NCBI GenBank assembly: GCA_902702965.1
Contig: CACRXP010000071.1
Location: 1,237,904 to 1,301,903, forward strand
From: Spirometra erinaceieuropaei
Lineage: Eukaryota > Platyhelminthes > Cestoda > Diphyllobothriidea > Diphyllobothriidae
Direction: 5' to 3'
Length of the DNA stretch: 64,000 nucleotides
Shown: one piece after another, positions 1-46,783 of the stretch
Position numbering within the stretch: position 1 is the first letter of the stretch
How the letters are laid out: the number at the start of each line of letters is the position of its first letter
Position numbers and translations under genes: made by a program
The notes under the pieces: generated by a model
Database searches by the model: none
What the model saw: the letters and a program-made list of their open reading frames with translations, nothing else
What the model was told of the DNA's origin: nothing

Positions 1-133
1 AGTATTTGGCGAGTGTGTGCACGGTCAACTTATAGTCAACTTATGTAATCTAATCATTCAATCAAGCCGCTGAGTGCTTAAGAGATTAATGCATTCACAC
101 CACTGGTGTTTGGTGACTAAAAACAGTCATACA

Positions 134-18322: not shown

Positions 18323-18376
18323 CTTAGGCAAATAAATTTCTTGTTCCGGTGATCGCATCTTCATCTTCTGAACTTA
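18323..18376 (+). mobile_element. PLE terminal-repeat tail fragment
   Basis: GGCAAATAAATTTCTTGTTCC followed by GGTGATCGCATCTTCATCTTC matches the sequence that follows the PLE hammerhead at 46217-46261. The hammerhead itself is missing here, so this is a ~50-bp remnant. Confidence 0.65.
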
Positions 18377-28729: not shown

Positions 28730-30828
28730 TAATTTACCGTTGGTTAAGTGTCATCAAGTCCGAATGTGGCAAAAGTTGGCGTTTCCTATATGAAAAAATC
28801 GCTTTAGTTAGCCATAAAAGGCTTTGCTAAGCGAACATTTATATGCAGCTTGGAAAATACGGTCTTCTGGAGCGGTTTGCCTTCTGAACTCTGGCTGACA
28901 TCCTCTTAGACGACTTCTTTTTAATTTTCATACTTCGGAATATGAAATTTCGGGAAGTTGTACACTCCAACCTAAGCGACTTAAAATTACAAGTGCTTTA
29001 AGCTACCGCAAGAAGGCGCCTTTTACAACACAAAATATGTTTAATGGCTAAATGGCGTCTGCAGAAGGTGAATTTAAATTTGGTTATAATATGTTCGTGT
29101 TGAACTTCCTCTATGGTGAACTGACAAAGGAATTTAAAGGAATTAAGTTGTCAGGCATCGTTTGACCTGTCTTTTCTCGAAAAATTTGCATGTGATATAG
29201 TTTAGCGTGTCGCGTCCATTGTTTCCTGGGGAAGATTTAGAAGAAGAGAAGGCGAGTTCATTGACCGAACTGTATTTAGGCCGGAGTTTCGGAAACTTCC
29301 CTGTTTCTATCATCAGGGTGCTGTCACTGCTGGTCTTGAACCCCGCATCCTTTCCGTCTACCTGGTATTATAACCGTGCTGGGCTAACGAACTTTGGCTT
29401 GACTAGCCGTGCTTATTGGTCTCCCCTTCGTCGGCCGGCCGGCTGTTTGGCCGCTGCTGCCCTTGCAGGCGCGCCGGTGAGGCAGTGCTCCGTGCTGGTC
29501 ACGTGACCTCTCGTTGGTTCCCCCCGTTTTCCCGTGGGCCTCGGCTGCCGGCTTCTCGTGTGGTTGCGCACCTGTCCAAAACGACTCGGGCCTTGCGCGT
29601 AGCGCCTGGTAGACGGCATGTAGTTCCATGACTCGTATAAGTCTGTCAGTCGAAAACCAAAATCCGAACATCATTCTGACCATCCTTTCACCGACTCGGC
29701 TAATGACTCTCGTTTTCTCAGAGGCGAAACAGTGGTTTTGCCGTTGCGCATGTCCGCAGACCAGAGGTAATTTATCCTTGTGATTAATTACAAGCTAGTG
29801 TTCGTTCAAACTCGCGTCAGATCGAGCTGAAAACGTTCACCATACAGTTTGCAAGTGATGTTTTAGCACCAAAAGCTGGGGCTGATTATTGTCTCGTGTG
29901 CAATACATTTTGTCTATGGTGCTACCTGACTAGAATCATATCCGACGGATTCTGTCAAGTGTACACTTTGATTTTATCAGTTTCGGTTGTCTTGAAGGGA
30001 CACCTTTAATACTTCGAAAAGAGACCAAAGAACAAGTAAAAAGTAATTTGGAGCCATTAAAATGGCGTACGCTAACGTTCTCTAAATATGCTGAAAGTCC
30101 AAACAATGTTTGCTGTACTCTGCAACCTGGCGACAGAGTCGCACTTTGCTGGCATCCTAGACTCGCATATCACTTTATTAGTTTGAGTGCTAGGGAGCAG
30201 TTCTTCTGTCGCCACTTTTGGCCAGATGAAAGCAAAAAAGAGTAGTAATACTCTCGCGGCTGATAAACCGTTCTTTTTCTGGGATGAGCCCGTTAATTGC
30301 GGTCCATTAGGGATGCGTGTTCGTCAAGTCGTAACAAAAGAAATATCTGGTGAACAAATTGGAGCAGTCGCCTTGACTTACTGGCCATGCGGGCTAGGAG
30401 AACATAGAGCCCAGCTGAGATGGAACGTTAGACAGTGAAAATTTAAATTTTGCTCCCTTCGGTTCTACTGCTTTTAGGTTTTTGCTATTGTTAAACTTTT
30501 GACAGAACTGCCCAGTCAGTTGCAAACCTCAATAAAACGCGATTATTCTGTTTGAACACCAAATGCTGGTACAGTCGAATAAAAGGACCAAATCTCAGTT
30601 TTTCTAGATATTCAGATCGTGACTAAAATTGCAAGCAAAGCGATAGTCCCCATCTAAGGCAAAGAGCAAAGTCTATAAGTTTTAAATCTAACGCAAGAAT
30701 TATTTGGGCTTTTGTGCATTTTCCGTTAAATTTGTTGGACACTGCGTTAGCATTCCTGACAGTAACTCGTATTTGATATAAGGTCAACACCCTTGGCCAT
30801 CTATTTTGAGCCTTTTCTGTGGCTGTAT
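28730..30828. other. No recognised gene; contains a GC-rich island
   Basis: 29395-29620 is strikingly GC-rich (CGGCCGGCCGGC, GGCGCGCC) in AT-rich surroundings. Overlapping 68-99 codon frames on both strands there follow from low stop density in GC-rich DNA. 30048-30438 has two overlapping plus frames (65 and 83 codons) without a motif. Confidence 0.4.
29395..29620. other. GC-rich island
   Basis: About 225 bp rich in CpG, including an AscI-like GGCGCGCC and a run of GGCC steps. It could be a CpG-rich promoter or first exon, or a fragment of a GC-rich mobile element. Nothing in the sequence decides between these. Confidence 0.5.
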
Positions 30829-30866
30829 CTGATGACAGCTTCGAGTGAGAATCCAGAACACCAGAC
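30829..30866 (+). ncRNA. Decayed hammerhead motif, upstream terminal repeat
   Basis: CTGATGA is intact at 30829-30835, followed by CTTCGAGTGAGAATCC, the stem II/loop sequence of the family. The second core segment is mutated (AGAACACC where GAAACGTC is expected), so it should be inactive. The tail AACAAGCCTCTGGCTCCAGTC resembles the family tail. Confidence 0.6.
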
Positions 30867-30983: not shown

Positions 30984-31733
30984 TTCCGACGGGTCTTCAA
31001 AGCCAATGGCTACCCGCGCAACTTCCTCAACCGGTGCGTGCGCAAAACGGACGACAGACCTAACCGCATAGAAACCTAATTTTAACGAGCGCTTCCGTAT
31101 GTCAAGAACGCTTTGGAAGCCGTTGGCCGCCCTCTCGCACCACATGGGGTTGGAGTTGCACACAGACCGGAGACAACCATCAGGCGTCAGGTAATGAAAT
31201 CGAAAGATCCGTTGCGACGACAGGAAAAGTCTGGAGTCGTTTATCGGACCTGGTGCGGTTGTGGACAAAACAACTACGTCGGAGAAACCGGAAGACAGCT
31301 CCGAACGAGAATGGCCGAACACGCTGCAGCGGTACAGAGAAATGACGCAAGCTCTCAAGTTGCGGCTCAAACGACGAGATCCGGCCACACATTCAAATTC
31401 GACGAGGCCGAAATTCTCGTCAGAGGTGACAAACGCGTGGGCTGCGAGCTGATTGAGTCATGGTGCGCTGACTCCCAGTGTATTAACAAGTTCAATGATC
31501 CTCCTCTTCCATACTCGGTGCTGAGACTTCGCCTAAGCGGAGTAATTAGCCACATGGTGAACACCTTTCCCAACGCCAAGGTCGGTGGGTCAGATGATCG
31601 AGCAATCATCACACCGACATCCAACACACGTGATGAAATTGCAGCAATTAACGACGCGAATGACGACAATCGAACGATCATCACACCAAGTGTAACGATC
31701 CCTTATGAAGGGGGGAGCCGTGAATATTCATAG
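30984..31733 (+). pseudogene. PLE coding relic with GIY-YIG endonuclease (lineage 1)
   Basis: One frame runs through FRRVFKANGYPRNF and, after two in-frame stops (TAA at 31077 and 31083), RALPYVKNALEA and an open 206-codon stretch from 31113. In that stretch GVVY (residues 41-44) and YVGETGRQLRTR (55-66) form the GIY-YIG signature, H70 follows, and E112/E115 with N125 are candidates for the catalytic Glu and the conserved Asn. In PLEs this nuclease follows a telomerase-like RT and makes the nick that primes reverse transcription. The RT part is lost. The nuclease fold itself has no stop, but the element as a whole is dead. Confidence 0.85.
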
Positions 31734-31760: not shown

Positions 31761-31767
31761 TATAAAT
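31761..31767 (+). promoter_or_regulatory. TATAAAT box upstream of PLE hammerhead
   Basis: TATAAAT, followed by TCTGCAGTC, 51 nt before the CTGATGA core. The same box occurs 50 nt before the cores at 39828, 46183 and 46500, followed there by ACTGCA. A start about 30 nt downstream would put the ribozyme at the 5' end of the RNA. Confidence 0.65.
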
Positions 31768-31807
31768 TCTGCAGTCCCCTGTGCATGAGCCACCCGTATA
31801 TGCTTTT

Positions 31808-31849
31808 GTCTCTGATGATGGGTTCGAGCAGGGATCCGAAACGTCAGGC
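31808..31849 (+). ncRNA. Minimal hammerhead ribozyme of a PLE, intact core
   Basis: CTGATGA (31812-31818), stem II of six pairs including two G-U wobbles (GGGTTC / GGATCC, loop GAGCAG), then GAAACGTC (31838-31845). The bases AC and GT of the last block can form only a two-pair stem III with no loop, so the expected cleavage (after C31845) probably needs a dimer, as proposed for PLE hammerheads. Stem I is GTCT / AGGC, and a further helix GCTTT (31802-31806) / AAAGC (31854-31858) lies beyond an internal loop. All conserved core bases are present. Confidence 0.8.
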
Positions 31850-31876
31850 TAATAAAGCTCTTGTCTTAGCGGCCAT

Positions 31877-32629
31877 GTCTTCTTCTTCTTCTTTACGAAC
31901 TCTGGTCACTCGGGTCCAGTGAGGAAAATAAGTGGAGGTCCTACTGGAGCAGCTAATTCTGATACCTTAAATGTCATGCTGATGACTCTTCGTCCTTTTG
32001 GAAGAGAACTTGATTGAATATGAAATCGAGAAAATAAATTTGTGCAAGTCGCAAGAAGAACTATACAGTACGGGGCCTATCTAATGAAATCTGATAACGG
32101 AAACTGATCCCAAAATTCCTGAACGTCTTTAACCTTGCCCAATTTGGTCGCTGATTTGATCGGCTAGTCTTCTGTCCCGTCATGGAAAACCCGTTGATCC
32201 TGGTTGTCCTCTTCCAAAATTCTATCGATTATCTAGAATCCAAATCCCGCAATGCGATGTGGAGTGGTTTGACAAAAATAACTCCCACTTACATGATTCC
32301 GCTCAAGAGCCTCTGACATATCGATCTGGTAAAACCTTTCTGTGATCCCAAGCTGTCAGACTTAAAGCAGATTTGGCGTAAAAGTGTGCGGCCATTATTT
32401 CAAGCAACAGTTCGCTCATCGGCCGCTGGCAGGCCTGCCAACCAGAGACAGGAGATTATGTCCATTCCACTCCCTTTTTGAAGGACTTCTTCTGCAGAGA
32501 CAAAAATGAACATTAAGATATGAGTTGACATAAGTTCATGGCTGTGTTTCCGTTCGGGTTCTGTGCCCGGTCCACCGTTCAGTAGACCTAGGTAACATGT
32601 CTCATAAACTGTCAAGTGAAATACTAAAA
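31877..32629. other. No recognisable gene
   Basis: Short frames only. 32040-32160 has AATCTGATAACGGAAACTGAT and a following ACGTCTTTAAC block repeated in diverged form at 33060-33115, pointing to another old repeat. Confidence 0.4.
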
Positions 32630-33075
32630 CATTATTTCTGTTAGAAGAAAGTACTCAGATTCGGTTGTAATGTTGATTATCGTGCAGCATAATGTCAAGA
32701 TATTTTGCTCACGACAGGGCGGGGGCTTTTTCATGAGCATCGTATGCCGTAAAAAAGATTCAAAAATCGGCATGAATTTTTTATCGATTTTCGATGCCTC
32801 CACTCATGTATATATACTTTTATAGAAAGTATAAACACGAAAATGTTGTTTGTTTCAAATGTATTACTAAGATGAACGATATCTTATATTTTCAAAAAAA
32901 GTATTTTCAAATCACAAATAATTTTGGATTGATATTATCGTTTACGGTTCTTGCACCCTACGCCGGAAACCCAATTACGAAAAATAATGCATCCGTCTAT
33001 ATCACGAACACGACTGCACATAAGGCCTGGGAAATTTTAAAATGTACAGTACGTGACCTATCCCCTAAAATCTGA
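32630..33075. mobile_element. Degenerate inverted-repeat element fragment
   Basis: GGTTGTAATGTTGATTATCG and GCAGCATAATG, later ATCGATTTTCGATGCC, follow the left-arm order of the subfamily-1 elements. The rest is too diverged to place. The 93-codon frame at 32794-33075 lies inside this relic. Confidence 0.5.
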
Positions 33076-34859
33076 TAGCGGAAACCGATGCGAGGATTTC
33101 TGGGCGTCTTTAACGTTGCGCGTTTTGTTCGCTCATCTACTTCCTTTAATAAAATGTCCTTTTTTTGTGCAGAAATTGTGGTTAAGTAGTTATATAAAGT
33201 AAAATATCAATAAATTTTAGAGAAAATGGACTTTGAAATATATTCGTGCAATTTCTCATGCAAATACATGTCCTAGACTCCATTTATGCATCTGAGTGAC
33301 TTTTTCATGGAAAGAATAGTAATCTACGCTCTAGAGGTTTAAGAAACAGATTTATCCGAACTTTAAAATTTATTTTATGTCCGATGTTGACCGCGGTAAT
33401 AAACCTGCTAACACAAAGGCAATTTTAAGAAGACCAACGGTTTTATCAGTTCCTAAATGTCAATTTCGCAGATCTCTGCGATTAAGTGCCCTAAAGAGCA
33501 GTAATAACACAGACAGGGATTCCTCCGTTTAAATGGGCTGACATTGTTTTGCCGTTTGGAAAATTCTACCTGATGTCACATAAATGACCACAACCAAATG
33601 GTCATTTTCAGTTTTGAACACATAAAACACTACCTGTGGTGTTGCTTAGTTTCCGTGCATACTTTATTCAGCAATAAAACGAGCAAGACATTAAGAGTTT
33701 CAGCAAAATATCAGTATTTATATGGACGCTCTGCCATGCATTTGCAATCGTAAAACTGAATCTATAAGCGTGCAAAAATAATGGAAATGGTCTCAATGTA
33801 TAGAGAAACGTATGTTCCTATGTCTACGGTCGAAAAACTAGTATTTTGTAGAAACGTGAGAGAAACGGACAAAAGTGTCACATTTTTACTTGGCCTCGTC
33901 GTGCAAAAATGCAAGGGACAGAGATCCGTCAACGGAGTGCAGTGATAAAGCATTTTCTCGAGAAATAAATTATTAAGGAAAGTTTTCTTATTGGTCGAAG
34001 ACATATTTGTTGCTGGCTTTCGTTGTGGACAGCCATTCTTCTCGAAAATAAAGTTTGATGTTTGAATGCGTCTTCATATGTGATCCAAACGACCATCCTT
34101 GTGAAAAAGAAAGCCCGAATATTCACTAAGTCGATAAATGCTTTCAAGAATAATCTTATATTTAGGTTCTCAACAGACAGGTAGGTTAAAATCTGTCTTA
34201 ATGGACGATCGGGTGAAAACATTGAAACTCATGAAGTACTCTGTACGAACCCCTGGAAAACTGTTTTGAAATCTGCACTCAGATTTTAGGCAGTTGACAA
34301 ACCGTCACATATGAAATCACACTAATAATTAAACGAGATTTAGATGTAAACTTCGCTGAAACACGATTATTAGACGTTATTTTACCTCTACTTTCATATT
34401 TATTACGTTTTTGGTATGAGAATACATTATATACACCTAAAAACGAAGTTAGCTAAATTGGAGCCATCTCTGATGTTTTCGGGATAATTTGTTTTTCAAA
34501 ATAAATCGGAATTTCTAAACAACGCAACACTGCCTTTTATATACCTTAAACTGTTTTAATTCTTTTAAACTTGTACTTAACTAACTTAGACATTGGACTC
34601 ATTAAATGGTGTCGGTTTGCGAGTGAGTAGCAATCATTCGTAAATTTTGACACATTTCGTGAGTTAGGTCCCTAACTGTACTTTTTATTATAGTGTCGCA
34701 TTAGCCGGAGCTGAAGTCTTATAAGTAGAATTTTAAAAAGCCTTTGTCTATGCACTTTATGTGACAAAAGTACTTTTCAAACGTTTCTCCTAAAATCGCC
34801 CGTTTTTTGACGCGTGGTCTGTGTTTAGAGTGTTAGCGTCTCAAAGCCTACGCCCTCTT
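33076..34859. other. No recognisable gene
   Basis: AT-rich. Minus frames of 80 and 97 codons (33762-34004, 33929-34222) overlap each other and lack motifs. Confidence 0.45.
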
Positions 34860-34899
34860 TTATTATCCGGGTGGTTGTTAAAGCCCGGAAAATGAAACC

Positions 34900-35610
34900 A
34901 CTGTGTTTCAAAAGTTCAGAGGACAGTTCGGCCGTCGTTGCTGACTGTGTTCACCTTGTGGCTCAAAGCAGAGTGGACGCAGGAACGGTGACTTGTGCAT
35001 GCATTTGTCGGTAAGACGTGGTTATGTAGCGCCACCTGATGGACACAGTACTGATGGAGTTGGGTTAGGGGTCAGGTTTAGGGATTTGAGCTAGGGGTTA
35101 AGGTTAGTGCTTAGGGCACTAATGTGCAACTACGCACTCCCAATAGCGTTTTTTGCATGCAACTGTTTTTCAACTATCTACTTAGCGCCATCTTTTATCT
35201 TAAGAAATTAACTTTACGAGCAAGTTTGGAGCTAACTCGCCCTTTCACCCCATAACCCCTGGAAGAAATCCAAAGTCTGCAGTTAACAATTTAACTGAGT
35301 AGACATCTCCATGCGATCTTCTTCCATTTCAAACGATTGTTCTGCGATTTCGAGGGCCTAACGATCATTGGTAAGGAAACAACGAGTATGAGCGAACTTT
35401 GTTTACACCGACGCCTTCTATACTTCCGACGAAAATGTTCTTAGTAAGTAATGTAAAATAAGAAATGACGCGCATTGCATCATTCAGGAGTAACGGAGTT
35501 ATTTTGCTCGTGCAGAACAATGAGAGGTAAGATGCGGTCATCTAGCTGTTATTTAGAGTTTAGGGTTAGGGGTCAGGTTTAGGTATTAGAGTTAGGGGGC
35601 AGGGTAAGTG
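34900..35610. repeat. Dispersed repeat with two degenerate telomere-like tracts
   Basis: 34915-34990 (GACAGTTCGGCCGTCGTTG, later CTCAAAGCAGAG) matches 47512-47585. Two tracts rich in GGTTAGGG-like words follow at 35061-35117 and 35553-35610; both contain GGGTTAGGGGTCAGGTTTAG, so they are direct repeats of each other. They are too irregular to be telomeric arrays. Confidence 0.5.
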
Positions 35611-36385
35611 GTTAGAATAACTATTTTTCAACCACTCAAATTGCGACTGTGCACTCCATACAACTGTTTGACCTCGTCGCTTGTGCATAACCCGACTCCA
35701 CCTGTAAAACCCCCTATGACCACCGGTCCCGTAAAACAGGTGGCTGAGATTTGTTTACTTCAGGTTGGGCTACATAGTCACATCTGGCCAATTAGTCTAT
35801 ATTGATAGCCGACTTTCACTGCGTCTGCAGCATTCCTTCCTCTACAAGGATCTCGAGTAATCGTAGAGACAGAAAGACCGGAGGCGGGACAGGCACTACA
35901 TGGGCCCGAATCTCGGCGTAATGTCAGTGCTGCTCATATTTGGTTTTTTAAATTAGACGTATCCAAATCCTTTTTTAAGTAATTTGCTGCTAGAGCACAA
36001 AACTTCGCCTCTGACTAGAATTAGATTTGACTGTTTGGTTTCATCCAGCCTTGCCTGCTTCTGAGTTTACAAAAAATAAAGTTTAGGCATCATCTAACTG
36101 ATATCGCAGGAAAGACCTGAAATTTGAACAACTGATAAGAACTGTGGACGACGTTAAATAATTGGCACTGTGCTGTGCTTCGGCCAATCTTGCTAATGCA
36201 AGATTGCTCCACGTGTGGAAAGATTGTTACATTGCCTCAATAGAACGATATTATAAGAAGAAATTGAAACAATCATTAATCGACTCCCATTTTGAACTTT
36301 CGTCGATTACAAAAAGGTTAGATATGAAAGTCCTGCTTTCCGAAATTTTTAGCGGATATTTCTTGCCGAACAGAATGGTTGAATG
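35611..36385. other. No recognisable gene
   Basis: Small frames only. 36163-36200 (CTGTGCTGTGCTTCGGCCAA) resembles 44177-44205, another trace of a dispersed repeat. Confidence 0.4.
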
Positions 36386-36390
36386 AATTA

Positions 36391-37380
36391 CAGTGAGTCA
36401 CCGATCTCATGAAATGTTGACTGAAATTCAGAAATGCGTTTTTGATTAGGAAGGATTACTTAAGCACGGTTGTAATACTGATTATCTTGCGACATAACCC
36501 CGTTTTATTTCGTACTCGGTAGTATGTCAGCTGCTAACTACGCTGCTTTTAAAACTTCCGCAGGAACCGTACTTAGCAAAAAAGACTACTTGTGCAGCAT
36601 GCATTTTTCCCATTGGCTTTAAGTGGTCTGGAAAATTCAAACATATTATATAGAAAACCCGGACAAAAACAAGCTTTCTTTCAGTCGTTTGATAGAGAAT
36701 CACGTCACCGTTATATTTTGTACTCAAAGAAGTAGTATAATAAGTTTTAAAAATATTTCTTATTATGAGTTTTTTCAAGACCGCGCAATGTCCGTTCATA
36801 TAGCATCATAGCTCTCCGTTTACACCTGCTCCTCATAAAATGCACAACATAGTCCGCATCCGTTGAAACTTTTACGGGCTCTGTATTATATCTGTTTAAA
36901 GGCATAAAAGAGTATGTGATTTTCCTTACGCGGAACACATGCACCTTGTAGACTGAAACCACTAAGTGCCAATGCAGTGACTGATCGGGCTCCAAATTAT
37001 ACGGCAATTAAGAAACATTTTTAAAACTCAACTGTACCCCTTCTTCAAAAATAAAATATGAAAATGACATGATTCTCTATCAAACGACTGAAAGAAAGCA
37101 TACTTTTGTTCGGAGTTTTCATAAAATATATTTGAATTTGCAAGGCCATCGAAAATCAACGGGAAAATGCATGCTACAAAAATGGTCATTTTTGCCAAGT
37201 ACGTTTCCTGCAGAAGTTTTAAAAGCAGTTTATCCGGCAACTGACATTTCGCCGAGTCCGAAATATTACAGGATTATGGTGCAGGGTAATTAGTATTACA
37301 ACCGCGTCTAAGTAGTCCTTGCTAATCAAAAACGCACTTCAGAATTTTAGCCAGCATTTCATGAGATCGCTCACCAACTG
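36391..37380. mobile_element. ~990-bp inverted-repeat element (subfamily 1)
   Basis: Begins CAGTGAGTCACCGATCTCAT, ends with GAGATCGCTCACCAACTG, and TA flanks both ends (36389-90, 37381-82). The length matches the copies at 23944 and 48311. The arms are more diverged from each other than in those copies, yet both keep private features such as AAAACTTC.GCAGGAA, CGTACTT.GCAAAAA and CTTTCAGTCGTTTGATAG. No coding capacity; frames here come from the arms. Confidence 0.8.
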
Positions 37381-37509
37381 TATACTGCTGCGGCATATTT
37401 GACGCATTCCTACGCACGTTTCAGTAGTGCCATTAACCAACATCTAGACTTGTGTTTCCTCACTATTTTTCCTCCGTGTGCGCTTTCCGCGTGCGATTTC
37501 TGCTAACCA

Positions 37510-37785
37510 GTTCAGACCCAAATTTATATATTTTAATCTTTTCGAAAACTAATGTTTGGGCTGATGGATTACGGCCAAAGCATTCATAACAAATCACCAA
37601 CCAAGTACATACAGCCTCGCTTCGAATTATTCACTTCAAGTCAGCGCAACAATTTCTGAGGAAGGCTGGGGGGCCACTAATGAACGAAACATCTCGTAGA
37701 TCTGCCACACCGGCAGAGTATTGGGGTAGCAGGTGTCTGAGTTTTTAAGTAGTACCTGTGCGGGCAGTAGGGCGAACCATACGGA
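37510..37785 (+). repeat. Degenerate copy of the window-start repeat
   Basis: GGCTGGGGGGCCACTAA, CGTAGATCTGCCACACCGGCAG and GGTGTCTGAGTTTTTAAGTAG follow the order found at 497-600. It ends just before the large duplicated segment. Confidence 0.45.
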
Positions 37786-37890
37786 AGGATGCCTGTTATG
37801 CGGGAGTTTTCGAAATAAACAATGGTTGACCTAACTCGAGAAAAGTGATGACGGGAACGTATGTGATCATTACGGTGTATCTTAAACTTT

Positions 37891-38136
37891 GTGCAGTTTG
37901 CGCATCCACCATCTCCTTTCCAAGCGATGTCTTTTGTTCATGCAGAATGTTTCGAAGTAATTTTATCAGGCGATCTGTCTACAAAATTGAGCGTAAATTT
38001 ACGTTGCCTTGCATTTAAGGGATTCCCCATTTTAACGGACCTCACAGACTGCGTTTGCGCTTCTGTGCCTGTTTTTCTACGAGAGAAAAGTAATCTGAAC
38101 TGGCGAATTCTACCAAACTGTCTGTTGTCCACTTGA
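37891..38136 (+). CDS. 81-codon frame conserved between duplicated copies, unknown
   Basis: The frame starts ATG, runs MQFAHPPSPFQAMSFVHAEC... and ends in NCLLST. The equivalent frame at 43252-43497 has the same length, start and stop, with a handful of replacements such as L/M, V/I and P/R. No domain, signal peptide or membrane segment is evident. The opposite strand is also open for 64 codons in both copies. With only ~5% divergence, an open frame can survive by chance, so coding status is doubtful. Confidence 0.2.
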   Translation: MQFAHPPSPFQAMSFVHAECFEVILSGDLSTKLSVNLRCLAFKGFPILTDLTDCVCASVPVFLREKSNLNWRILPNCLLST

Positions 38137-38801
38137 AATTTCTTTTTATCGTTAGCTTGAATGAGTGAGACAGTGTGTAGACACAGAGTACTTTTAGAAA
38201 ACTAGACGATTTGGGGTTCCGAAAATTCGGGTCTATAAAAATGTGTGCTTTTATGTTCTAGAAAGCAGTATTAGCGTCTAAAAGCGATATTTTCCTTTAA
38301 CGTATCCATATTTTCCTGGCTTGTGGGAATATCTCATGAGTAACTGCATCCAGTAAAATACCTTTTGTACAATCCAAATTCAGCCAATACGATATTTCAA
38401 AACAGAACGGCCAGAACATAAGTGGGCTGAATGATTTGCTAGAATCTTAATGCACATTCCGTTGTGTATTTCTAAGTACAAAACAGAGCCTAGAAATAGG
38501 CACGAATAATTAAAATGGTTCCAGTTTAAAGAGAAAAGTAGGTTTTCTTGCCTGGGCAAAAATTTTTTTATTTTTTAAGGAAGTGAAATGTTCAGCGAAA
38601 CGTTTTATTTTTTTCCTTAGAACTCGTCAGCAAAATGCCTTATTAGATCGCGGTTTAAAGGGATATTGTTTACAAGTTTTTCCGCTGATTAAGAACATGT
38701 CCATCGCAGACTTTCGTTCTGGGTGTCTGTTTTTTTCAGGAATGAAGTTCATGTTTGGATGAATCTACATCTATGATGCAAACGCAAATTAACATCTGCA
38801 T

Positions 38802-38920
38802 NNNNNNNNNNNNNNNNNNNNNNNNNNNNNNNNNNNNNNNNNNNNNNNNNNNNNNNNNNNNNNNNNNNNNNNNNNNNNNNNNNNNNNNNNNNNNNNNNNN
38901 NNNNNNNNNNNNNNNNNNNN
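38802..38920. other. Assembly gap (119 N)
   Basis: A run of 119 Ns. The duplicated segment B has 966 bp (44168-45133) at the matching position, so the true gap may be far longer than 119. Confidence 0.95.
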
Positions 38921-38934
38921 CTTTCTAGCCGCTG

Positions 38935-39335
38935 GCAAATGTCACACCCTGCAAAACATGACTGCTTAATCATTATGAGTGTTTCCATTGATTTTCAAAG
39001 CCCTTATCAATTCAAATGTGTTTCATGGAGAGTACGATTAAAAATATCCTGTCTTAAATGAACTTAGTAGATGACCACGTCTCCTTTGAAATTATTACTA
39101 AAAATGAAGATATCTTTAGGGTTTAACAAACACCTTACAATTATCGCATAATCATGGGCCCGATCTGCCGCTGCGCTTGTGTTTGGTATTTGGAGTCTAT
39201 AATCGGTATACTTTCTATGTATGAAAAATCATGCACTTTTCTATGACATTAAAAATGCACCGTAACATGATCACAATGTTTTGGAATGAGTGTGGACTAT
39301 GTTTTACGTCTCATGACAAACGTTAATTAGCCAAC
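38935..39335 (+). mobile_element. Inverted-repeat element interior in copy A
   Basis: CATTGATTTTCAAAGCCCTTA, ATTCAAATGTGTTTCATGGAG and ATCATGGGCCCGATCTGCCG correspond to left-arm and core blocks of the subfamily-1/2 elements. The same relic lies at 45150-45545. Its left end may be inside the Ns. Confidence 0.6.
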
Positions 39336-39341
39336 CAATGC

Positions 39342-39738
39342 GATGAGGAGGAAAGACGCTAGCTCTCAGGTGAAGGCTCATTCTACGGAACCCGGCCATA
39401 TTTCCAAGTTTCAATAAGCCGAAATACTTGCAAGAGCTGACAACCGCGTGAGCCGCGAGCTGCTCAAGTCATGGATCTCAGGCCCGCAATCCATCAACAA
39501 GCGTAATGACCTCCTGGTACCGTGTTCAGTGCTGAGGCATTCCCTGAGCAGGGGAATTAATCACGTGGGAAGGACGCTGGCGAGCAACAATCCCTGTAAC
39601 AGCGGGCCGAATGGCTGAGCAGTCATAACGCCAACATCCAACACGGATGATGGAGTTACTGCCATTAACGACTTGAACCTGGACTTACGAACCATCGTCG
39701 CCTCGATTACGACCACCAGCGGTGATCGCGTGAGCTGT
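39342..39738 (+). pseudogene. PLE GIY-YIG C-terminal relic (lineage 1), copy A
   Basis: The frame gives RRKDASSQVKAHSTEPGHI, then a stop, AEILARADNRVSRELLKSWIS and GPQSINKRNDL, aligning with residues 76-130 of the 31-kb nuclease. The GIY-YIG half is missing; the ELLKSW block carries the candidate catalytic Glu. Further stops follow. Confidence 0.75.
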
Positions 39739-39777
39739 TAACTATAGTACCTATGTGGCCCCACGGCAGCTGTGTAC

Positions 39778-39785
39778 TATAAATA
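39778..39785 (+). promoter_or_regulatory. TATAAATA box upstream of PLE hammerhead
   Basis: TATAAATA followed by CTGCAGTC, 50 nt before the hammerhead core at 39828. Confidence 0.6.
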
Positions 39786-39824
39786 CTGCAGTCATTCTGT
39801 CTCCACTACCTTTATCCGCAACTT

Positions 39825-39866
39825 TCCTTGATGATGGGTTCGAGTGAGAATCCGAAACGTCAGGCC
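39825..39866 (+). ncRNA. PLE hammerhead with C3-to-T core mutation
   Basis: The core reads TTGATGA (39828-39834) in place of CTGATGA. Stem II GGGTTC / GAATCC with loop GAGTGA and GAAACGTC (39854-39861) are intact. Loss of the conserved C should inactivate it. Confidence 0.7.
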
Positions 39867-40100
39867 AATAAATTTCTTGTTGCAGTGATCGCTTCTTCCT
39901 CTTCTAAATTGCTACCTGGAAATCGCCTGTTCGCTTCTGTTGGCAGGATTTTGTTTGATTTCAATGATAGAGACGTTTCGGGCTAAGTGCGCAGCATTTA
40001 AGACGTCCAAAAATTCTCATAGCACTTTCTGCCATCAAGTTCCGTGAAGTAGGTCACGTACTGTCCTGTATGTAATCGGAATAACCGGTTATGACAATCA

Positions 40101-40640
40101 GTGCATTCAGCTGTCACAAGAGCATTCCCCGCGGCGAATTTACGCGTATGTTTCACAAACTCTCCCCTCCTACGTTTGGGAGGTAAAGACAGACTACCGT
40201 TGGAGGCCACATCAATGTGCATCTACTCATTCACTTGCTCCTGTGGAGCAGGATACATCGGCCGTACAACGAGACGCCTGGTAAAGAGGGTGCGTGGACA
40301 TATGCCCGCCTGGCTAGGCAGAGGTGAGACCCGATCGGTTTCGAGTTCTATTCTCGCACATTTAATCGATACGGATCACCGAGTCGATGCCAAGGAAGCA
40401 TTTCAGGTTGTCTATCGGACACCAACAAGCTTCTCTAAAGGCCTTCGCCAACGGATACTAGCAACGGCCGAGGCAGTGGCAATACGGCTAACGAATCCGG
40501 TGCTATACTGTCAGAAAACCCTGACACAAGCGCTCTCTCTGCCGTGGCCAGCGCCAACCTCACGTGATGACGACATGCCGCCTCAAATCCCTGATTACAG
40601 TGATGGGTACTCCGTGTACTCAATCCAAGAGCATCACTCA
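40101..40640 (+). pseudogene. PLE GIY-YIG endonuclease fragment (lineage 2)
   Basis: An open 223-codon frame whose first ~180 residues are PLE. IYSF (41-44) and GYIGRTTRRL (51-60) form the GIY-YIG signature, R64 and H67 follow, E124 in TAEAVAI and N132 in TNPVLY are the expected metal-binding Glu and Asn. It cuts DNA to prime reverse transcription in intact PLEs. The RT half is absent. The last ~43 codons (from 40641) come from the adjoining inverted-repeat element, so the C-terminus is chimeric. It belongs to a lineage different from the nuclease at 31 kb: spacing and flanking residues differ and no hammerhead follows. Confidence 0.85.
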
Positions 40641-40967
40641 AAATCTGAAGACCATGTGATTTTCTATCAAAGAAGCAAAAGAAAGCATATTTTTATACAT
40701 GTTTTTATAGAATGCATTTTAATATATAAGACCATCGAAAATCAATGCGAAATATGCATGCTACTTAAGTAGTCATTTTTTACCGATTGTGGTTTCTGCG
40801 GGAGGTCCTAAGAAGTGTATTCAAAAGTCGACATCCCGCTGAGTTCGAAATGCTATATAATTATGCTGCATGCTAATCAGTATTACAACCCCACTTAAGT
40901 AATCCTTCCTAATCGAAAACGCATTCCAGAATTTCGGCCAACATTTCATAAGATCGGTCACGCACTG
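40641..40967 (+). mobile_element. Right arm of subfamily-1 inverted-repeat element
   Basis: Starts in the inner right arm (GAAGACCATGTGATTTTC) and runs to ATAAGATCGGTCACGCACTG with TA outside (40968-69). The left arm and core are absent. The PLE fragment abuts it directly. Confidence 0.75.
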
Positions 40968-40969
40968 TA

Positions 40970-41158
40970 GTTAGCAACAGTATGAACACGGTTTGTGGTT
41001 GTGGATATCGGTAAGCCACTTTAAAACCTTCTTAAAACAACAGAATTTGTAGACAACGTAATGTCGCAGAAGTAAATGGAGAAACTAAATGCCTTTTTTG
41101 CAGATTTTAGTTGGACGCGGAAGTAAGTACCTCCCCCGTACTACGGGCGGACTTTCTT
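40970..41158. other. Spacer between element fragments
   Basis: No gene or repeat recognised. Confidence 0.5.
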
Positions 41159-41299
41159 GAGAGAGAGAGAGGAATGCTTTATTTTGAAAATAGCTTTCAA
41201 AACGTTCAGCAAAAACGGTTTTCCAGTACACAGTGATTACCATAGAGATAAACAGGTTTTGGACAGGTGGATATAATTATATATGAAGAAAAAAGGACT

Positions 41300-42829
41300 T
41301 TAAGGTGCAAGATCGAGTTTTAGTTTTTGTTTTTCAGCATCTTTGCAGGTGAGATACCGGGCTAGAAATGGCAGTATGGAATTCTGATAAGCCGAAATGT
41401 GACAAGGGACGCGGCGGAAGCATCGACGCATGGGGCGTAAGGATTTCGCAGCCATTAACTCATTATGAAGGAGATGGACGGTGTCATTCAGAATTCGGTC
41501 AGCAAATTGCTCCACCGTATTGAAGTGTCGCTGCACGATGATATCAACTAAAATATGATAGGAAACACCAGCAGCAGAGGCGAGCATTCGAAGGACACGT
41601 TTAAAAATAATTAGATCTTTTTTAAGTAAAGCTGGAAAAATAACTGGAGAACAATAAAGAATGAGTGGAAGAATACAGCCACCTATGAATCGCCAGATTA
41701 TGGACTGGGGTGTATGATATGAACGTAGACGACGAATGTAATAAACAAGTTTTTGAATTTTTGTTAAAAGTGTTTCCATATGAAGAGAGAAAGAGCGATT
41801 TGAGGACAAAGTAACACCTAGGTACCGGAAAGAGGATACCTCATTGGGAAGAATATCCAAAGGTTCAGGAATGGAAGAGGGCCGCAATCGAAACAAACAC
41901 TGTACTGATTTCTGATTGTTGAGTAGGAGTCCATTATTCGACGACCATGCGGAGACGTGATCTAATCCATCCTTTAAAGACTGTAGGTGAGTCAGGTTTT
42001 TGAGTGGGTGGCCTACGACCATGTCATCGGCATACTTAACATACAGGCAGTCGTTTGGTGATCTCAAATCATCAGTATGAACATAGAAAAGATGAGGGGA
42101 TAAGATGGAACCTTGTAGAACTCCACAATCATTTGGAAGAATAGCAGATTTTCTCTTTCCCGACTGGACAAACTGTGTGCGGAAGGAAACATAATCTCTA
42201 AGCCAAGAAACAACCCAGCTCGGAGCGTCACACGCAGCTGCTTTGGTCAGTAGGAGTTGGCGCGGAATAGTATTGAAGGCGGATGAATAGTCGAGAAAAG
42301 CACATGCATATGCACGGCATCCCTTGTCTAAGTCTATCATAGCTGAATGGACAACTAAAGCAACAGCATCCAAGGTGCTACGCTTTGCCTCGTATGCAAA
42401 TTGTAGAGGATCATTAAAATTGACGGAGGAGTGCTTAAGGCAATCTAATGCAACTCGTTCAGTAAGTTTCAGGAGTACAGAAGAGCAGGCAATAGGACGG
42501 AAAGATTTAGGAGCAAAAGTTAAAGATTTTTTAGGGATTGGAGTAATTCTTACTGTACGCCAGGCGTCAGGAGTCTTGGACTCTATGAAGGATAGATTAA
42601 TAAGGTGGGTCAAGGCGGGAGCTATCTGCGAACAGCAAGACTTAAGGAGAAGAGGAGAGACACCGTCCGGCCCAGCCGCCGTTGACCCGCGAACCTTTTT
42701 GAGATGTTGTTCCACTGTTGTCACAGTCACAGGAGTAAAGTCGCATGGTGGTAGGTAAATTTCGTTTGGGCGAGAATGGGAGTCTTTAGAAGTACAGATA
42801 AAATTTCGATTTAAAGAGTTGAAAGCCAC
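41300..42829 (-). CDS. LINE reverse transcriptase, frame still open
   Basis: 509 codons without a stop. RT blocks in order: GPDGVSPLLLK (53-63), ITPIPKK and SFRPIACSSVLLKLTER (109-125), FAYEAKRSTLDA (144-155), motif A FLDYSSAFNTIPR (178-190, Asp180), motif B GVLQGSILSPHLF (236-248), motif C YVKYADDMVV (263-272, catalytic DD 268-269) and a FRYLGVTLSS block. All catalytic aspartates are present. The sequence copies RNA into DNA at the target site in an intact element. The DYSSAFNTI wording fits the CR1/Rex/jockey group; a precise clade needs a tree. Two frameshifts (near 42900 and 42840) separate it from the upstream linker, so the element is not a complete ORF2. Confidence 0.9.
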   Translation of the reverse strand: MAFNSLNRNFICTSKDSHSRPNEIYLPPCDFTPVTVTTVEQHLKKVRGSTAAGPDGVSPLLLKSCCSQIAPALTHLINLSFIESKTPDAWRTVRITPIPKKSLTFAPKSFRPIACSSVLLKLTERVALDCLKHSSVNFNDPLQFAYEAKRSTLDAVALVVHSAMIDLDKGCRAYACAFLDYSSAFNTIPRQLLLTKAAACDAPSWVVSWLRDYVSFRTQFVQSGKRKSAILPNDCGVLQGSILSPHLFYVHTDDLRSPNDCLYVKYADDMVVGHPLKNLTHLQSLKDGLDHVSAWSSNNGLLLNNQKSVQCLFRLRPSSIPEPLDILPNEVSSFRYLGVTLSSNRSFSLHMETLLTKIQKLVYYIRRLRSYHTPQSIIWRFIGGCILPLILYCSPVIFPALLKKDLIIFKRVLRMLASAAGVSYHILVDIIVQRHFNTVEQFADRILNDTVHLLHNELMAAKSLRPMRRCFRRVPCHISAYQNSILPFLARYLTCKDAEKQKLKLDLAP

Positions 42830-42830
42830 A

Positions 42831-43145
42831 TCAATGGATTAAGTATATTACGTTGACCAGTGAGACGCTTGAGATTCCTCCACAGTTCAGCATAAGAAAA
42901 GGAGAGGAGGGGGTGGATGAAGTAGAAAAAAGTTGACTGACAAATAAACCGTTAAGTCTGGCGATTTCGTTCTTTATTAAAACATTGATATCCTTCACCT
43001 TGTCACGCTGATCTAGTTTGTAGAAGGCTTCTTTGCGACGTCTCAAGTGTTTGAGGTATAGTGAGGAGATTCTGTCAAGCCTGACTATAACAGTTTCACG
43101 GGGACGACAAATATCAAAAATGTGATTCAAAAATACCGTAAGATT
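42831..43145 (-). pseudogene. LINE linker between endonuclease and RT, frameshifted
   Basis: The frame FLNHIFDICRPRETVIVRLD...RRRKEAFYKL is basic and helical, typical of the region just before the RT of CR1-like ORF2. It shifts frame near 42900 to give YAELWRNLKRLTGQRN, then shifts again near 42840 into the RT frame. Confidence 0.7.
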
Positions 43146-43251
43146 GTTAGAGCCTGTTATGCTGGAGTTTTTGAAATCACTAATAGTTGACCTAACTCGA
43201 TAAAAGTGGTGAAGGGAACGTATATCATCATTACGGTGTATCTTAAACTTT

Positions 43252-43497
43252 GTGCAGTTTGAGCATCCACCATCTCCGTTCCGAGCGATGTCTTTTGTTC
43301 ATGCAGAATGTTTCGAAGTAATTTTATCAGGCGATATGTCTACAAAATTGAGCATAAATTTACGTTGCCTTGCATTTAAGGGATTCCCCATTTTAACGGA
43401 CCTCACAGACTGCGTTTGCGCTTCTGTGCGTGTTTTCCTACGAGAGAAAAGTAATCTGAACCTGCAAATTCTACCAAACGGTTTGTTGTCCACTTGA
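43252..43497 (+). CDS. 81-codon frame conserved with copy A, unknown
   Basis: Same length and ends as the frame at 37891-38136. No recognised domain. See that entry for doubts about coding status. Confidence 0.2.
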   Translation: MQFEHPPSPFRAMSFVHAECFEVILSGDMSTKLSINLRCLAFKGFPILTDLTDCVCASVRVFLREKSNLNLQILPNGLLST

Positions 43498-44167
43498 AAT
43501 TTCTTTTTATCGTTAGCTTGAATGAGTAAGACAGTGTGTAGACACAGAGTACTTTTAGAATACTAGACGATTTGGGGTTCCAGAAGTTCAGGCCTACAAA
43601 AATGTGTGATTTTATGTTCTAGAAAGCAGTATTAGCGTCTAAAGGTGATATTTTCCTTCAACGTATCCATATTTTCCTGGCTTGTAGGAACATGCCATGA
43701 GTAACTGCACCCAGTAAAATACATTTTGTACAATCCAAATTCAGCCAATACGATATTTTAAAACAGAACGACCAGAACATTAGTGAGCTGAATGATTTGC
43801 CAGAATCTTAATGCTCATTCTGTTGTGTATTTCTAAGTACAAAACAGAGCCTAGGAATAGGCGCAGATAATTGAAATGGTTCCAGTTTAAAGAGAAAAGT
43901 AGGTTTTCTCGCCTGGACAAAAAAATGTTTTTTTTTATTTTTTAAGGAAGTGAAATGCTCAGCCAAACGTTCTATTTTTCTCAATAGAATTCGTCAGCAA
44001 AATGCCTTATTAGATGCGGTTTAAGGGGATATTGTTTACAAGTTTTTCCGCTGATTAAGAACATGTCCATCGCAGACTTTCGTTCTGGGTGTCTGTTTTT
44101 TTCAGGAATGAAGTTCATGTTTGGATGAATCTACATCTATGATGCAAACGCAAATTAACATCTGCAT

Positions 44168-44745
44168 AAAAAGAACGCCGAACTGTGCTCTGCTTCGGCA
44201 AGGGCTCTCAAAAGATATCTCATCCAGGGCGTTTCCTTAAGCGCATCGGATAAAACATACATCTTTGGACAGTCAATTTGGAACATTGGAACTCAACGGA
44301 CTCCATCACAACCACCATCGCCACCAAAATCCATAAACTAATTTTTCGGAAAAGAAATTTTTCGTGATACACAAAAGATGGTGCACTTTCAATTGCGCCT
44401 GCCAATTCTATTCCAACTTCTTTATCCTTATCTGGTCTGTCGACATGTGACCCTTTAAAAATTCTTATTGCAGTGATAACATTGTCACCGAAATTAAGTC
44501 CATCTCAAACGACGCAAAAACGGATAAAATTACAGAAAATTCTTGTGGAACCACTATCAATCCCTACTTAGGGCGTAGATGGTTGACTAACCGCCAAACC
44601 GGATACTACAGTAGTTCTAGGGGAATATTTGTGTACAAACGGCAAAGCATTGCAACCACCACGGTTACTATGCCAGTCGGTAAGCTGGTACAACCAGTCC
44701 GGTCCTGAAAACTGACACCACTTCGGTGGCCCATCTCGTAGAGTG
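44168..44745. repeat. Unclassified repeat within copy B
   Basis: No gene. CTGTGCTCTGCTTCGGCAAG resembles 36168-36190, and GGAACCACTATCAATC with the following block resembles 52952-53000, so parts of this stretch are dispersed repeats. Confidence 0.4.
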
Positions 44746-44746
44746 T

Positions 44747-44830
44747 TGACCGGAATTCTGAAATTCGTTTTGGGGAAGAAAGGATTACTTAAATGAAGTT
44801 GTAATGATGATTATCGTGCTTCAAATATTG
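44747..44830 (+). mobile_element. Left-arm fragment of inverted-repeat element
   Basis: GTTGACCGGAATTCTGAAATTC, AAAGGATTACTTAAATGAAG and TTGTAATGATGATTATCG match the subfamily-1 left arm. Interrupted at 44830; the interior of the same element probably resumes at 45150. Confidence 0.6.
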
Positions 44831-44849
44831 TGTGCATCTACTATGCCAC

Positions 44850-45060
44850 GCTTCATTAGACCATGACTCTTGCAGCCTGGTGTGCGTTGACAGTTCAGTT
44901 TTCTTGACTAGGTCTTGACACCGAGCTCAGACGGGACAGGAGGAGGGAGTGCGTTAGATGCTGTACAAGTCCGCCATCACCATAAACTAAGTCACGCACA
45001 AGCCACCGTGCCTGATCTCACCTTGCTGTGAAGCACATGGTGTACATAGTCGAAGACGAC
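44850..45060. repeat. Dispersed repeat (R5), copy 1
   Basis: Collinear with 47105-47290: AAGTCCGCCATCA, AAGTCACGCACAAGCC and CACCTTGCTGTGAAG recur there as AAGTCTGCCATCA, AGCTCACGCACAGCCC and CACTTTGCTGTGAAG. It appears to be inserted in the inverted-repeat element. Confidence 0.6.
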
Positions 45061-45149
45061 GGTGGAAATGACACCGTGCAACATAATCCGACTTTATTCC
45101 AATCACACCCGGATCCGGCCTTTGAAGGCTTTTCTTTCTAGCCGCTGGC

Positions 45150-45545
45150 AAATGTCACACCCTGCAAAACATGACTGCTTAATCATTATGAGTGTTTCCA
45201 TTGATTTTCAAAGCCCTTATCAATTCAAATGTGTTTCATGGAGAGTACGATTAAAAATATCCTGTCTTAAATGAATTCTGGTAGAAGACCAAGTCTCCTT
45301 TGAAATTATTACTCAAGATAAAAATATCTTTAGGGTTTAACAAACACCTTACAATTATCGCATAATCATGGGCCCGATCTGCCGCTGCCTTGTGTTTGGT
45401 ATTTGGAGTCTATAATCTGTATACTTTCTATGTATGGAAAATCATTCACTTTTATATGACATGAAAAATGCACCGTAACGGGATCGCAATGTTTTGGAAT
45501 GAGTGTGGACTATGTTTTACATCTCATGACGAACGTTAATTAGCT
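45150..45545 (+). mobile_element. Inverted-repeat element interior in copy B
   Basis: Near-identical to 38935-39335 of copy A. Left-arm blocks are followed by core blocks; the right arm is lost. Confidence 0.6.
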
Positions 45546-45549
45546 AGCC

Positions 45550-45806
45550 AATGCGATGAGGAGGAAAGACGCTAACTCTCAGGTGACGACTCGTTCTACG
45601 GAACCCGGCCATATTTCCAAGTTTCAATAAGCCGAAATGCTCGCAAGATCTGACAACCGCGTGAGTCGCGAGCTGCTCAAAGCATGGTTCTCAGGCCCGA
45701 AATCCATCAACAAGCGTAATGACCTCCCGGTACCGTGTTCAGTGCTGAGACATTCCCTGAACAGGGGAACCAATCACGTATGGAGGGTGCGGGCTAGCAA
45801 CAGTCT
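45550..45806 (+). pseudogene. PLE GIY-YIG C-terminal relic, copy B, first part
   Basis: The equivalent of 39342-39600 in copy A. The reading is broken by stops in the same places and is interrupted at 45806 by a younger PLE insertion; the remainder resumes at 46262. Confidence 0.7.
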
Positions 45807-46132
45807 TCGTAACTGATAAAAGCGAACAGGCGAGTCCCAGGTAGCAGTTCAGAAGATGAAGATGCGATCACTGGTACCCTATTTCGTATTGCGATTTTCC
45901 CTGTGCAGGAGAATCAGTCACGTGGGGAGGGCGCGGGTGAGCAATTATCACGGCGACAGTGGCCAGTTTGCCGAGCAATCGTCACACCAGCATCCAGCAC
46001 GGATGACGAAATCGCGGCCATTAACGACTCGGACTCGGACCGCCAAGCCACCGCCGCATCAATTACAACCCCAGCGGCGATTGCGAGAACTGTTAATTGC
46101 AGTGCGCATACGGTCCCACGGCAGCCACGTGC

Positions 46133-46140
46133 TATAAATA
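46133..46140 (+). promoter_or_regulatory. TATAAATA box upstream of PLE hammerhead
   Basis: TATAAATA then CTGCACTC, exactly 50 nt before the hammerhead core at 46183. Confidence 0.6.
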
Positions 46141-46178
46141 CTGCACTCCTGGTGTCACCTTCACTTCTATCTGCGAAT

Positions 46179-46221
46179 GTCTCTGATGGTGGATTCGAGT
46201 GAGAATCCGAAACGTCAGGCA
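46179..46221 (+). ncRNA. PLE hammerhead with A9-to-G core change
   Basis: The core reads CTGATGG (46183-46189); stem II is a perfect GGATTC / GAATCC with loop GAGTGA; GAAACGTC is at 46209-46216. Stem I TGTCT / AGGCA gives five pairs including one wobble. The last core base is altered, so activity is doubtful. Confidence 0.7.
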
Positions 46222-46261
46222 AATAAACTTCTTGTTCCAGTGATCGCATCTTCATCTTCTG

Positions 46262-46440
46262 AGTCTCTGTAACAGCGGGCCGAATGGCTGAGCAATCATT
46301 ACGCCAACAGCTAACACGAATGATGGAGTTGCCGCCATTAATGACTCGGACCGAACTGAAGAGCCATCATCGCTCCGATTACGACCCCCAGCGGTGATCG
46401 CGAGAACTGTTAACTATAGTACCCATGTGGCCTCACGGCA
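46262..46440 (+). pseudogene. PLE relic, copy B, second part
   Basis: Resumes the reading of 45550-45806 after the inserted PLE (GTAACAGCGGGCCGAATGG is also at 39596-39615 in copy A) and runs to the terminal repeat. Non-functional. Confidence 0.65.
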
Positions 46441-46449
46441 GCTACGTAC

Positions 46450-46457
46450 TATAAATA
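46450..46457 (+). promoter_or_regulatory. TATAAATA box upstream of PLE hammerhead
   Basis: TATAAATA then CTGCAGTC, exactly 50 nt before the intact core at 46500. Confidence 0.65.
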
Positions 46458-46495
46458 CTGCAGTCATTCTGCTTCCACTACTTTTATCTGCAACT

Positions 46496-46538
46496 GTCCC
46501 TGATGATGGATTCGAGTGAGAATCCGAAACGTCAGGCC
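46496..46538 (+). ncRNA. Minimal PLE hammerhead, intact core
   Basis: CTGATGA (46500-46506), a perfect six-pair stem II GGATTC / GAATCC with loop GAGTGA, and GAAACGTC (46526-46533). Stem III can form only AC/GT without a loop. Stem I is GTC / GGC with a C-A mismatch next to the core. Conserved core bases are all present. Confidence 0.75.
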
Positions 46539-46783
46539 ACTAAACGCTTTCTTCCAGCGATCGCATCTTCTTCTTCTGAACTGCTTCTTGGAACTCGCCT
46601 GCTTGCTTTTGTTGGCGGACAGGATTTTGCTTGATTTCGGTGGTAGACCGTTGCGAGCAAAATGTGCGGCATTTAAGACGTCCGAAAATTATCATATCAC
46701 TTTCTGTCATCAAGTTCCATAAAGTAGGTCACGTACTTTACTGCACGTAATCGGAATAACCTGTTATGACAACCAGTCCATTC

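What the first reader, a model, noticed from the sequence alone, without database searches (positions are those of the whole stretch)
31761..46538. TATA box at a fixed 50-51 nt upstream of PLE hammerheads
Four hammerhead copies (cores at 31812, 39828, 46183, 46500) each have TATAAAT 51, 50, 50 and 50 nt before the core, in the same order with a CTGCA motif just after the box. Two belong to different PLE insertions, and one (31 kb) is clearly diverged. If transcription starts ~30 nt after the box, the RNA would begin about 20 nt before the ribozyme, so cleavage would trim nearly the whole leader and give a defined 5' end. PLE hammerheads are known; a rigid promoter-ribozyme module is, to my knowledge, less explored.
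Basis: partly seen in the sequence, partly recalled or inferred. Interest (0 to 1): 0.75.

Follow-up and report, generated by a model that had tools for sequence, protein, structure and literature searches.

The report
Retroelement promoter, start codon and ribozyme

Summary
TATAAAT lies 51, 50, 50 and 50 nt before the four ribozyme cores, each time followed by CTGCA. A fifth, decayed copy (core 30829) has TATAAG at 52. The host is, by inference, a Spirometra-like tapeworm rich in Penelope-like elements. The copies are homologous pLTR segments, so the spacing is shared by descent. In 42 of 50 copies where it could be measured it is 50 (4), 51 (33), 52 (2) or 53 (3), while an upstream intergenic interval varies from 68 to 97. 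A diverged clade has a box at 35 nt and another old copy at 43.

The fixed distance is therefore TATA, start site, short leader, AUG. Cleavage would remove cap and AUG, not just trim a leader. The spacing persists in copies whose ribozyme core is mutated (A14 to G). Some insertion 5' ends near -20 agree with a start site 30-31 nt after the box; many lie elsewhere.

The parts are published: hammerhead over the start codon (Anolis), TATA and first codons in a pLTR (rotifer), promoter plus hammerhead in a retrozyme LTR. New member of a known kind.

The parts
30777..30782 (+). TATA-like box (TATAAG) of a fifth, decayed pLTR copy, 52 nt before its core
30829..30865 (+). decayed hammerhead / ORF start copy (frame MTASSENPEHQTNK...)
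31761..31767 (+). TATAAAT box, pLTR copy 1 (51 nt before core)
31792..31792 (+). putative transcription start (A at -20, CCA+1CCC)
   Evidence: inference
31812..31848 (+). hammerhead core without stem III, copy 1; predicted cut 31845/31846; ORF ATGs at 31815 and 31818
39778..39784 (+). TATAAAT box, copy 2 (50 nt before core)
39828..39864 (+). hammerhead copy 2, core C3 mutated; ORF ATGs at 39831 and 39834
46133..46139 (+). TATAAAT box, copy 3 (50 nt before core)
46183..46219 (+). hammerhead copy 3, A9 mutated to G; ORF ATG at 46186; first unit of a tandem pLTR (317-bp period)
46450..46456 (+). TATAAAT box, copy 4 (50 nt before core)
46480..46480 (+). putative transcription start (A at -20, CTA+1CTTT)
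   Evidence: inference
46500..46536 (+). hammerhead copy 4, core intact; stem II 46508-46513/46520-46525; predicted cut 46533/46534; ORF ATGs at 46503 and 46506 (MMDSSENPKRQ...)
18325..18376 (+). PLE stub whose homology begins at the predicted ribozyme cut site (AGG), flanked by ACTTAG on both sides (overlap of up to 2 nt with the element)
31086..31733 (+). PLE ORF fragment with GIY-YIG-like motif (by eye; no Pfam hit at 0.001), upstream of pLTR copy 1

Best explanation
These are pLTR segments of an abundant Penelope-like retroelement in a diphyllobothriidean (Spirometra-like) tapeworm. Each holds a compact TATA promoter. RNA polymerase II would start at an A about 30 nt after the box (inferred). 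The leader is then 23-26 nt, and the ORF begins at an AUG made from hammerhead core bases (C3-U-G-A-U-G-A9-U-G), so the ribozyme overlaps the first ten codons. The constant TATA-to-core distance comes from common descent plus the need to keep TATA, start site and start codon together. The ribozyme lacks stem III. By analogy with published PLE hammerheads it would cut as a dimer or with the element's protein (inferred), after the GUC 28 nt into the ORF. Cutting would remove cap and AUG, so an RNA would be either messenger or cleaved template (inferred). Not every amplified copy keeps an intact ribozyme core.
For: Spacing 50-53 in 42 of 50 copies (the other 8 had no measurable box) against 68-97 for an upstream interval in 28 copies. 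TATA to the A at -20 is 30 (2) or 31 (38); length differences sit between that A and the core (20 x35, 21 x2, 22 x3). The frame is open across the ribozyme in the five window copies, for 28-51 codons before a stop, and 4 of 120 listed relatives, all annotated 786-aa proteins, start MMDSSRNPKRQ; the one scanned, P0073, has RT and GIY-YIG matches near the Pfam cut-offs. Insertions starting at about -20 with duplications: L022 (12-14 nt) and L017 (about 9-11 nt). Stem II has 6 double-changed cells in 57 unique rows, shuffle mean 1.45, 0 of 500 shuffles reach it. The Anolis element has the same ribozyme-over-start-codon geometry.
Against: No RNA data. 5' ends of insertions are broad: of 14 resolved between -100 and -1, three are at -17 to -21 and the rest at -86, -81, -79, -62 (next to N), -55, -45, -41, -38, -37, -6 and -5. 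Rfam finds no hammerhead in the window at gathering score nor at E up to 10 in 46100-46700. Two diverged copies have a box at 35 and one at 43. Stem I shows no covariation above shuffles. RNA folding prefers another hairpin for four of five single units. P0073 lacks internal stretches that P0005 has, so its gene model may be spliced or imperfect. In the Anolis element ribozyme mutants did not change insertion in vitro and no RNA-seq reads ended at the cut site.
Confidence: 0.75

Rival explanations
1. A rigid promoter-ribozyme module selected so that cleavage trims the leader to a defined 5' end.
For: Narrow spacing; one stub, window 18325-18376, begins at the cut site with ACTTAG on both sides.
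Against: The AUG lies upstream of the cut, so trimming destroys the ORF start. 15 fetched copies with A14 changed to G keep TATAAAT at 51 or 53. The L017/L029 clade has a box at 35.
Confidence: 0.12
2. Pure descent: the spacing is fixed only because the copies are recent relatives and indels are rare, with no functional promoter.
For: The copies are homologous; a 35-nt interval upstream of the box is equally invariant (36 of 36) and core to +54 is invariant (47 of 47).
Against: The intergenic interval further upstream varies widely (68-97, 28 copies); a box is kept at 50-52 in diverged copies w30829 and L010 and between subfamilies; a putative TATA box in a PLE pLTR is published.
Confidence: 0.25
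3. The tandem pLTR at 46183/46500 is a retrozyme-like unit whose RNA is cut at both ribozymes into a 317-nt monomer that circularises.
For: Two ribozymes 317 nt apart in tandem; invertebrate retrozyme circRNAs are about 170-400 nt (PMC7229834 passages).
Against: Only two units; the first core is mutated at A9; hammerheads lack stem III unlike the canonical ones of retrozymes; tandem pLTRs are normal in PLEs.
Confidence: 0.05

Closest known systems
PAc, Poseidon/Penelope element of Anolis carolinensis (PMC11167929; passages and second part of the main text seen)
   Same: RT plus GIY-YIG ORF, pLTRs, hammerhead described by stems I and II only that overlaps the start codon; cut 26 bp after the start codon there, 28 nt here; reverse transcription starts 111-118 bp into the ORF there, and here most 3' ends lie about 103-114 nt into it, with a second cluster about 70-82
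   Different: No TATA box or TATA-ribozyme distance in what I saw; host is a lizard; there the ribozyme was shown to need protein
Adineta vaga Penelope families (PMC3846280; passages seen)
   Same: pLTR with putative TATA and initiator, pLTR includes first codons of the ORF, optional tail, head-to-head inverted copies with palindromes
   Different: The word ribozyme does not occur in the main text; TATA 20 bp from initiator
NbRZ1 retrozyme LTR of Nicotiana benthamiana (PMC12029980; passages and section 2.1 seen)
   Same: Pol II-type promoter followed by a hammerhead in one terminal repeat; active ribozyme cuts off the 5' end and a reporter behind it is not translated
   Different: Plant, non-autonomous LTR element, not a Penelope element; start site mapped by 5' RACE in a ribozyme-dead mutant
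Small PLE hammerhead variants that cleave as dimers (Luense et al. 2017; Cervera and de la Pena 2014; not held, titles seen in reference lists only)
   Same: Hammerheads in PLEs; this one has GAAACGUC, a palindromic ACGU in place of stem III, fit for dimers (inference)
   Different: Could not compare sequences; Rfam models do not match here

Membership tests
Penelope-like element | RT and GIY-YIG endonuclease in one ORF | tested here: met
   L009 ORF 476 aa: RVT_1 2.2e-8 (34.5 bits, cut-off 29.6), GIY-YIG 9.9e-5 (23 bits, cut-off 22.6). P0073: RVT_1 28.4 bits (below 29.6), GIY-YIG 22.6 bits. The two short window ORFs 31086-31733 and 40095-40772 gave no Pfam hit.
Penelope-like element | pLTRs in tandem or inverted order, optional short tail, target-site duplications | tested here: met
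   317-bp tandem; 3' ends at +76..88 in 11 of 39 and +109..120 in 23 of 39, 5 uninformative (reference itself or near-duplicate); duplications of 11-14 nt with one mismatch at L022, L017, L042, other repeats reported there look like chance or internal; head-to-head pairs in L009, L013, L014, L018
Hammerhead ribozyme | core CUGANGA ... GAAA ... UH | tested here: met
   Present in 31812 and 46500; mutated in 39828 (C3) and 46183 (A9); A14 is G in 18 of 57 unique rows
Hammerhead ribozyme | stem II supported by compensatory change | tested here: met
   88.6% of cells paired, 6 double changes, 0 of 500 shuffles reach either; shuffles do not keep relatedness
Hammerhead ribozyme | three helices including stem III (canonical form) | tested here: not met
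   GAAAC joins GUC with no loop; fits only the stem-III-less PLE variants
Hammerhead ribozyme | match to an Rfam hammerhead model | tested here: not met
Hammerhead ribozyme | self-cleavage | not testable with these tools
   needs RNA
TATA-dependent Pol II promoter | transcription starts about 30 nt after the box | tested here: inconclusive
   indirect: some insertions begin at about -20, others do not
Retrozyme | non-autonomous tandem units making circRNA | not tested
   no RNA data; element has coding relatives

The most novel reading that the evidence does not exclude
A promoter, a 20-odd-nt leader and a start codon built into a dimer- or protein-dependent hammerhead form a fate switch: newly made capped RNA is messenger until element protein accumulates and triggers cutting, which removes cap and AUG and leaves only template; genomic insertions keep a fossil record of both RNA 5' ends, at -20 and at the cut site.
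Probability: 0.2. Interest if true: 0.65.

Novelty: new member of a known kind. Interest (0 to 1): 0.33.

Why it matters
To my knowledge it is open why PLEs carry hammerheads. Here the cut site, start codon and probable start site lie within about 55 nt, in an element present in very many copies, so both RNA ends can be tested from ordinary 5'-end data and from insertion boundaries. Amplified copies with a changed A14 suggest that cutting is not strictly needed for spread.

Tried and rejected
Rfam search for a hammerhead: none. Extended hairpin that RNA folding prefers in four of five units: no double changes in 57 rows, so variation does not support it as it does stem II. TATA spacing as chance: rejected. 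The idea that insertion 5' ends map only the start site: weakened, since they are broad. One stub at the cut site (window 18325) could not be extended to a distribution because the genome search stayed busy. Papers most relevant to PLE hammerheads and the D. virilis promoter are not held. Searches for Penelope-like+hammerhead+TATA and retrozyme+TATA box found 0 papers in the open library; that library lacks most subscription papers.
Full report
Observation. TATAAAT.CTGCA occurs only at these four places in the window. The four sites lie in homologous repeats, so they count as one ancestral arrangement, not four. A fifth copy (core 30829) is decayed and has TATAAG at 52. Cores 39828 and 46183 carry changes at C3 and A9.

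What it is. The genome (758.7 Mb) is, by inference, a diphyllobothriidean tapeworm: an open GPCR ORF at 19435-20625 is 83% identical to a Schistocephalus protein, and the PLE ORF next to the window (L009:3499-4926:-) matches 1078 proteins, the best at 93% identity in Sparganum proliferum (120 listed). That ORF has RT and GIY-YIG matches and stops 87 nt before a TATA box. A published repeat table gives about 198,000 Penelope elements, about 10% of bases, for each of two Spirometra/Sparganum genomes (PMC8166898, passages). In 229,174 non-N bases in hand (window plus 22 stretches) a profile built from ten of the copies finds 33 hammerhead-unit copies or fragments at E up to 0.001, 9 of them in the window.

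Start codon in the ribozyme. Reading from the core gives ATGATGGATTCGAGTGAGAATCCGAAACGTC, that is MMDSSENPKRQ..., open across the ribozyme in the five window copies and for 28-51 codons before a stop. Of the 120 listed relatives, 4 (P0073, P0074, P0076, P0077; 786 aa, consecutive locus tags) are annotated from exactly this start; none of the other 116 shows the SS..P..Q motif in its first 200 residues. P0073, the one scanned, carries RT and GIY-YIG matches, but it lacks internal stretches present in P0005, so the gene model may be spliced or imperfect. The PAc element of Anolis has the same layout, with the cut 26 bp after the start codon and in vitro cutting only with protein; there, ribozyme mutants did not change insertion in vitro and no RNA-seq reads ended at the cut (PMC11167929). 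Here the cut falls 28 nt after the A of the second ATG.

Spacing. 39 further copies were fetched from the 41 places (one was L022 itself, one a short second hit). They are biased to relatives of the L022 unit. In one search, 27 of 39 have TATAAAT (24 at 51, 1 at 50, 2 at 53), 2 have TATGAAT (51, 53), 5 have a mutated box in place, and 5 lack the pLTR. With 11 copies from the window and large stretches added, 42 of 50 gave a TATA-core distance, mutated boxes included: 50 x4, 51 x33, 52 x2, 53 x3; the 35-nt interval before the box was constant in 36 of 36; core to a point 54 nt on was constant in 47 of 47; an intergenic interval varied from 68 to 97 in 28. Against one reference (L034), indels fell in 9 of 41 TATA-core intervals and 1 of 49 ribozymes, against 20 of 30 and 32 of 34 for the two upstream intervals and 16 of 17 for +37..+85; the second upstream value is inflated by a poly-G run and the last by the reference's own 3' end near +79. 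So the rigid block is promoter, leader and ORF start together. In the profile sample, 28 of 33 hits were scored for a full core (one, L013 minus, only by a poor match); TATA-like boxes stand at 50 x4, 51 x3, 52 x3, 43 x1, 35 x2, 30 x1, 65 x1, 29 x1, and 12 have none. The two at 35 (L017, L029) share flanking sequence and TATAACTG and look like one diverged clade.

Ribozyme. 57 unique rows support stem II (88.6% paired; 6 double changes; 0 of 500 shuffles reach either) and give no double changes for the competing hairpin; stem I does not exceed shuffles. L019 has two stem II pairs changed on both sides (GGAAAC/GTTTCC) and L017 has AGCU instead of ACGU at the junction. A14 is G in 18 of 57 unique rows and in 19 of the 39 fetched copies; 15 of these 19 have TATAAAT at 51 or 53. 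That A14 is essential is recalled, not tested; the query L022 itself carries G, which biases this share.

RNA 5' ends as seen in insertions. L022 (105 bp) starts at about -21 with a 12-14 nt duplication, and L017 at about -17 to -20 with about 9-11 nt. L032, one half of an inverted pair, also starts at -21. The L014 pair seems to start near -20 by the profile alignment but was not resolved. Of 59 records examined, 14 have an end between -100 and -1; besides these three they lie at -86 (12-nt duplication), -81, -79, -62 (next to N), -55, -45, -41, -38, -37, -6 and -5. One stub, window 18325-18376, begins at the predicted cut product AGG with ACTTAG on both sides; the automatic boundary misplaced it, so this rests on the profile alignment and reading by eye. 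This is suggestive of a start site at -20 and of use of cut RNA, not proof; L022 was also the query for the fetched set.

How it works, most likely. Shown: the box, spacing, open frame from an AUG in the ribozyme, stem II covariation, PLE proteins, tails. Inferred: Pol II start at -20, translation from that AUG, cutting as dimer or with protein, and the choice between messenger and template. NbRZ1 gives experimental precedent that an active hammerhead behind a promoter removes the 5' end and blocks translation of a reporter (PMC12029980).

Verdict. Real, well placed, mostly ordinary for PLEs; the start-codon overlap changes the meaning of the fixed distance.

Noticed in passing
L019:3298-3220 (-), L017:3290-3185 (-), L029:7561-7468 (-): Diverged hammerhead units: L019 with two compensatory stem II pairs, L017 with AGCU and L029 with AGGU at the stem III junction; L017 and L029 have TATAACTG 35 nt before the core.
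   Followed up: partly
window 18325-18376: PLE stub starting at the predicted ribozyme cut site, with ACTTAG on both sides.
   Followed up: partly
L009 (5182+, 3379-), L013, L014, L018, L032, L052: Head-to-head inverted pLTR or ribozyme units, some folding back on themselves, as reported for rotifer Penelope elements.
   Followed up: partly
window 41300-42838 (-): 512-aa RVT_1 ORF of a different retroelement between the PLE copies.
   Followed up: no
window 19435-20625 (-): Open 396-aa rhodopsin-family GPCR ORF, 83% identical to a Schistocephalus solidus protein over 90% of its length.
   Followed up: partly
P0073, P0074, P0076, P0077: Four PLE proteins of the same length with consecutive Sparganum locus tags, perhaps a tandem array.
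   Followed up: no
L021, L023, L025, L026, L022, L019, L009: Long runs of N in the sampled stretches (two wholly N), which lower the searched total to 229,174 bases.
   Followed up: yes
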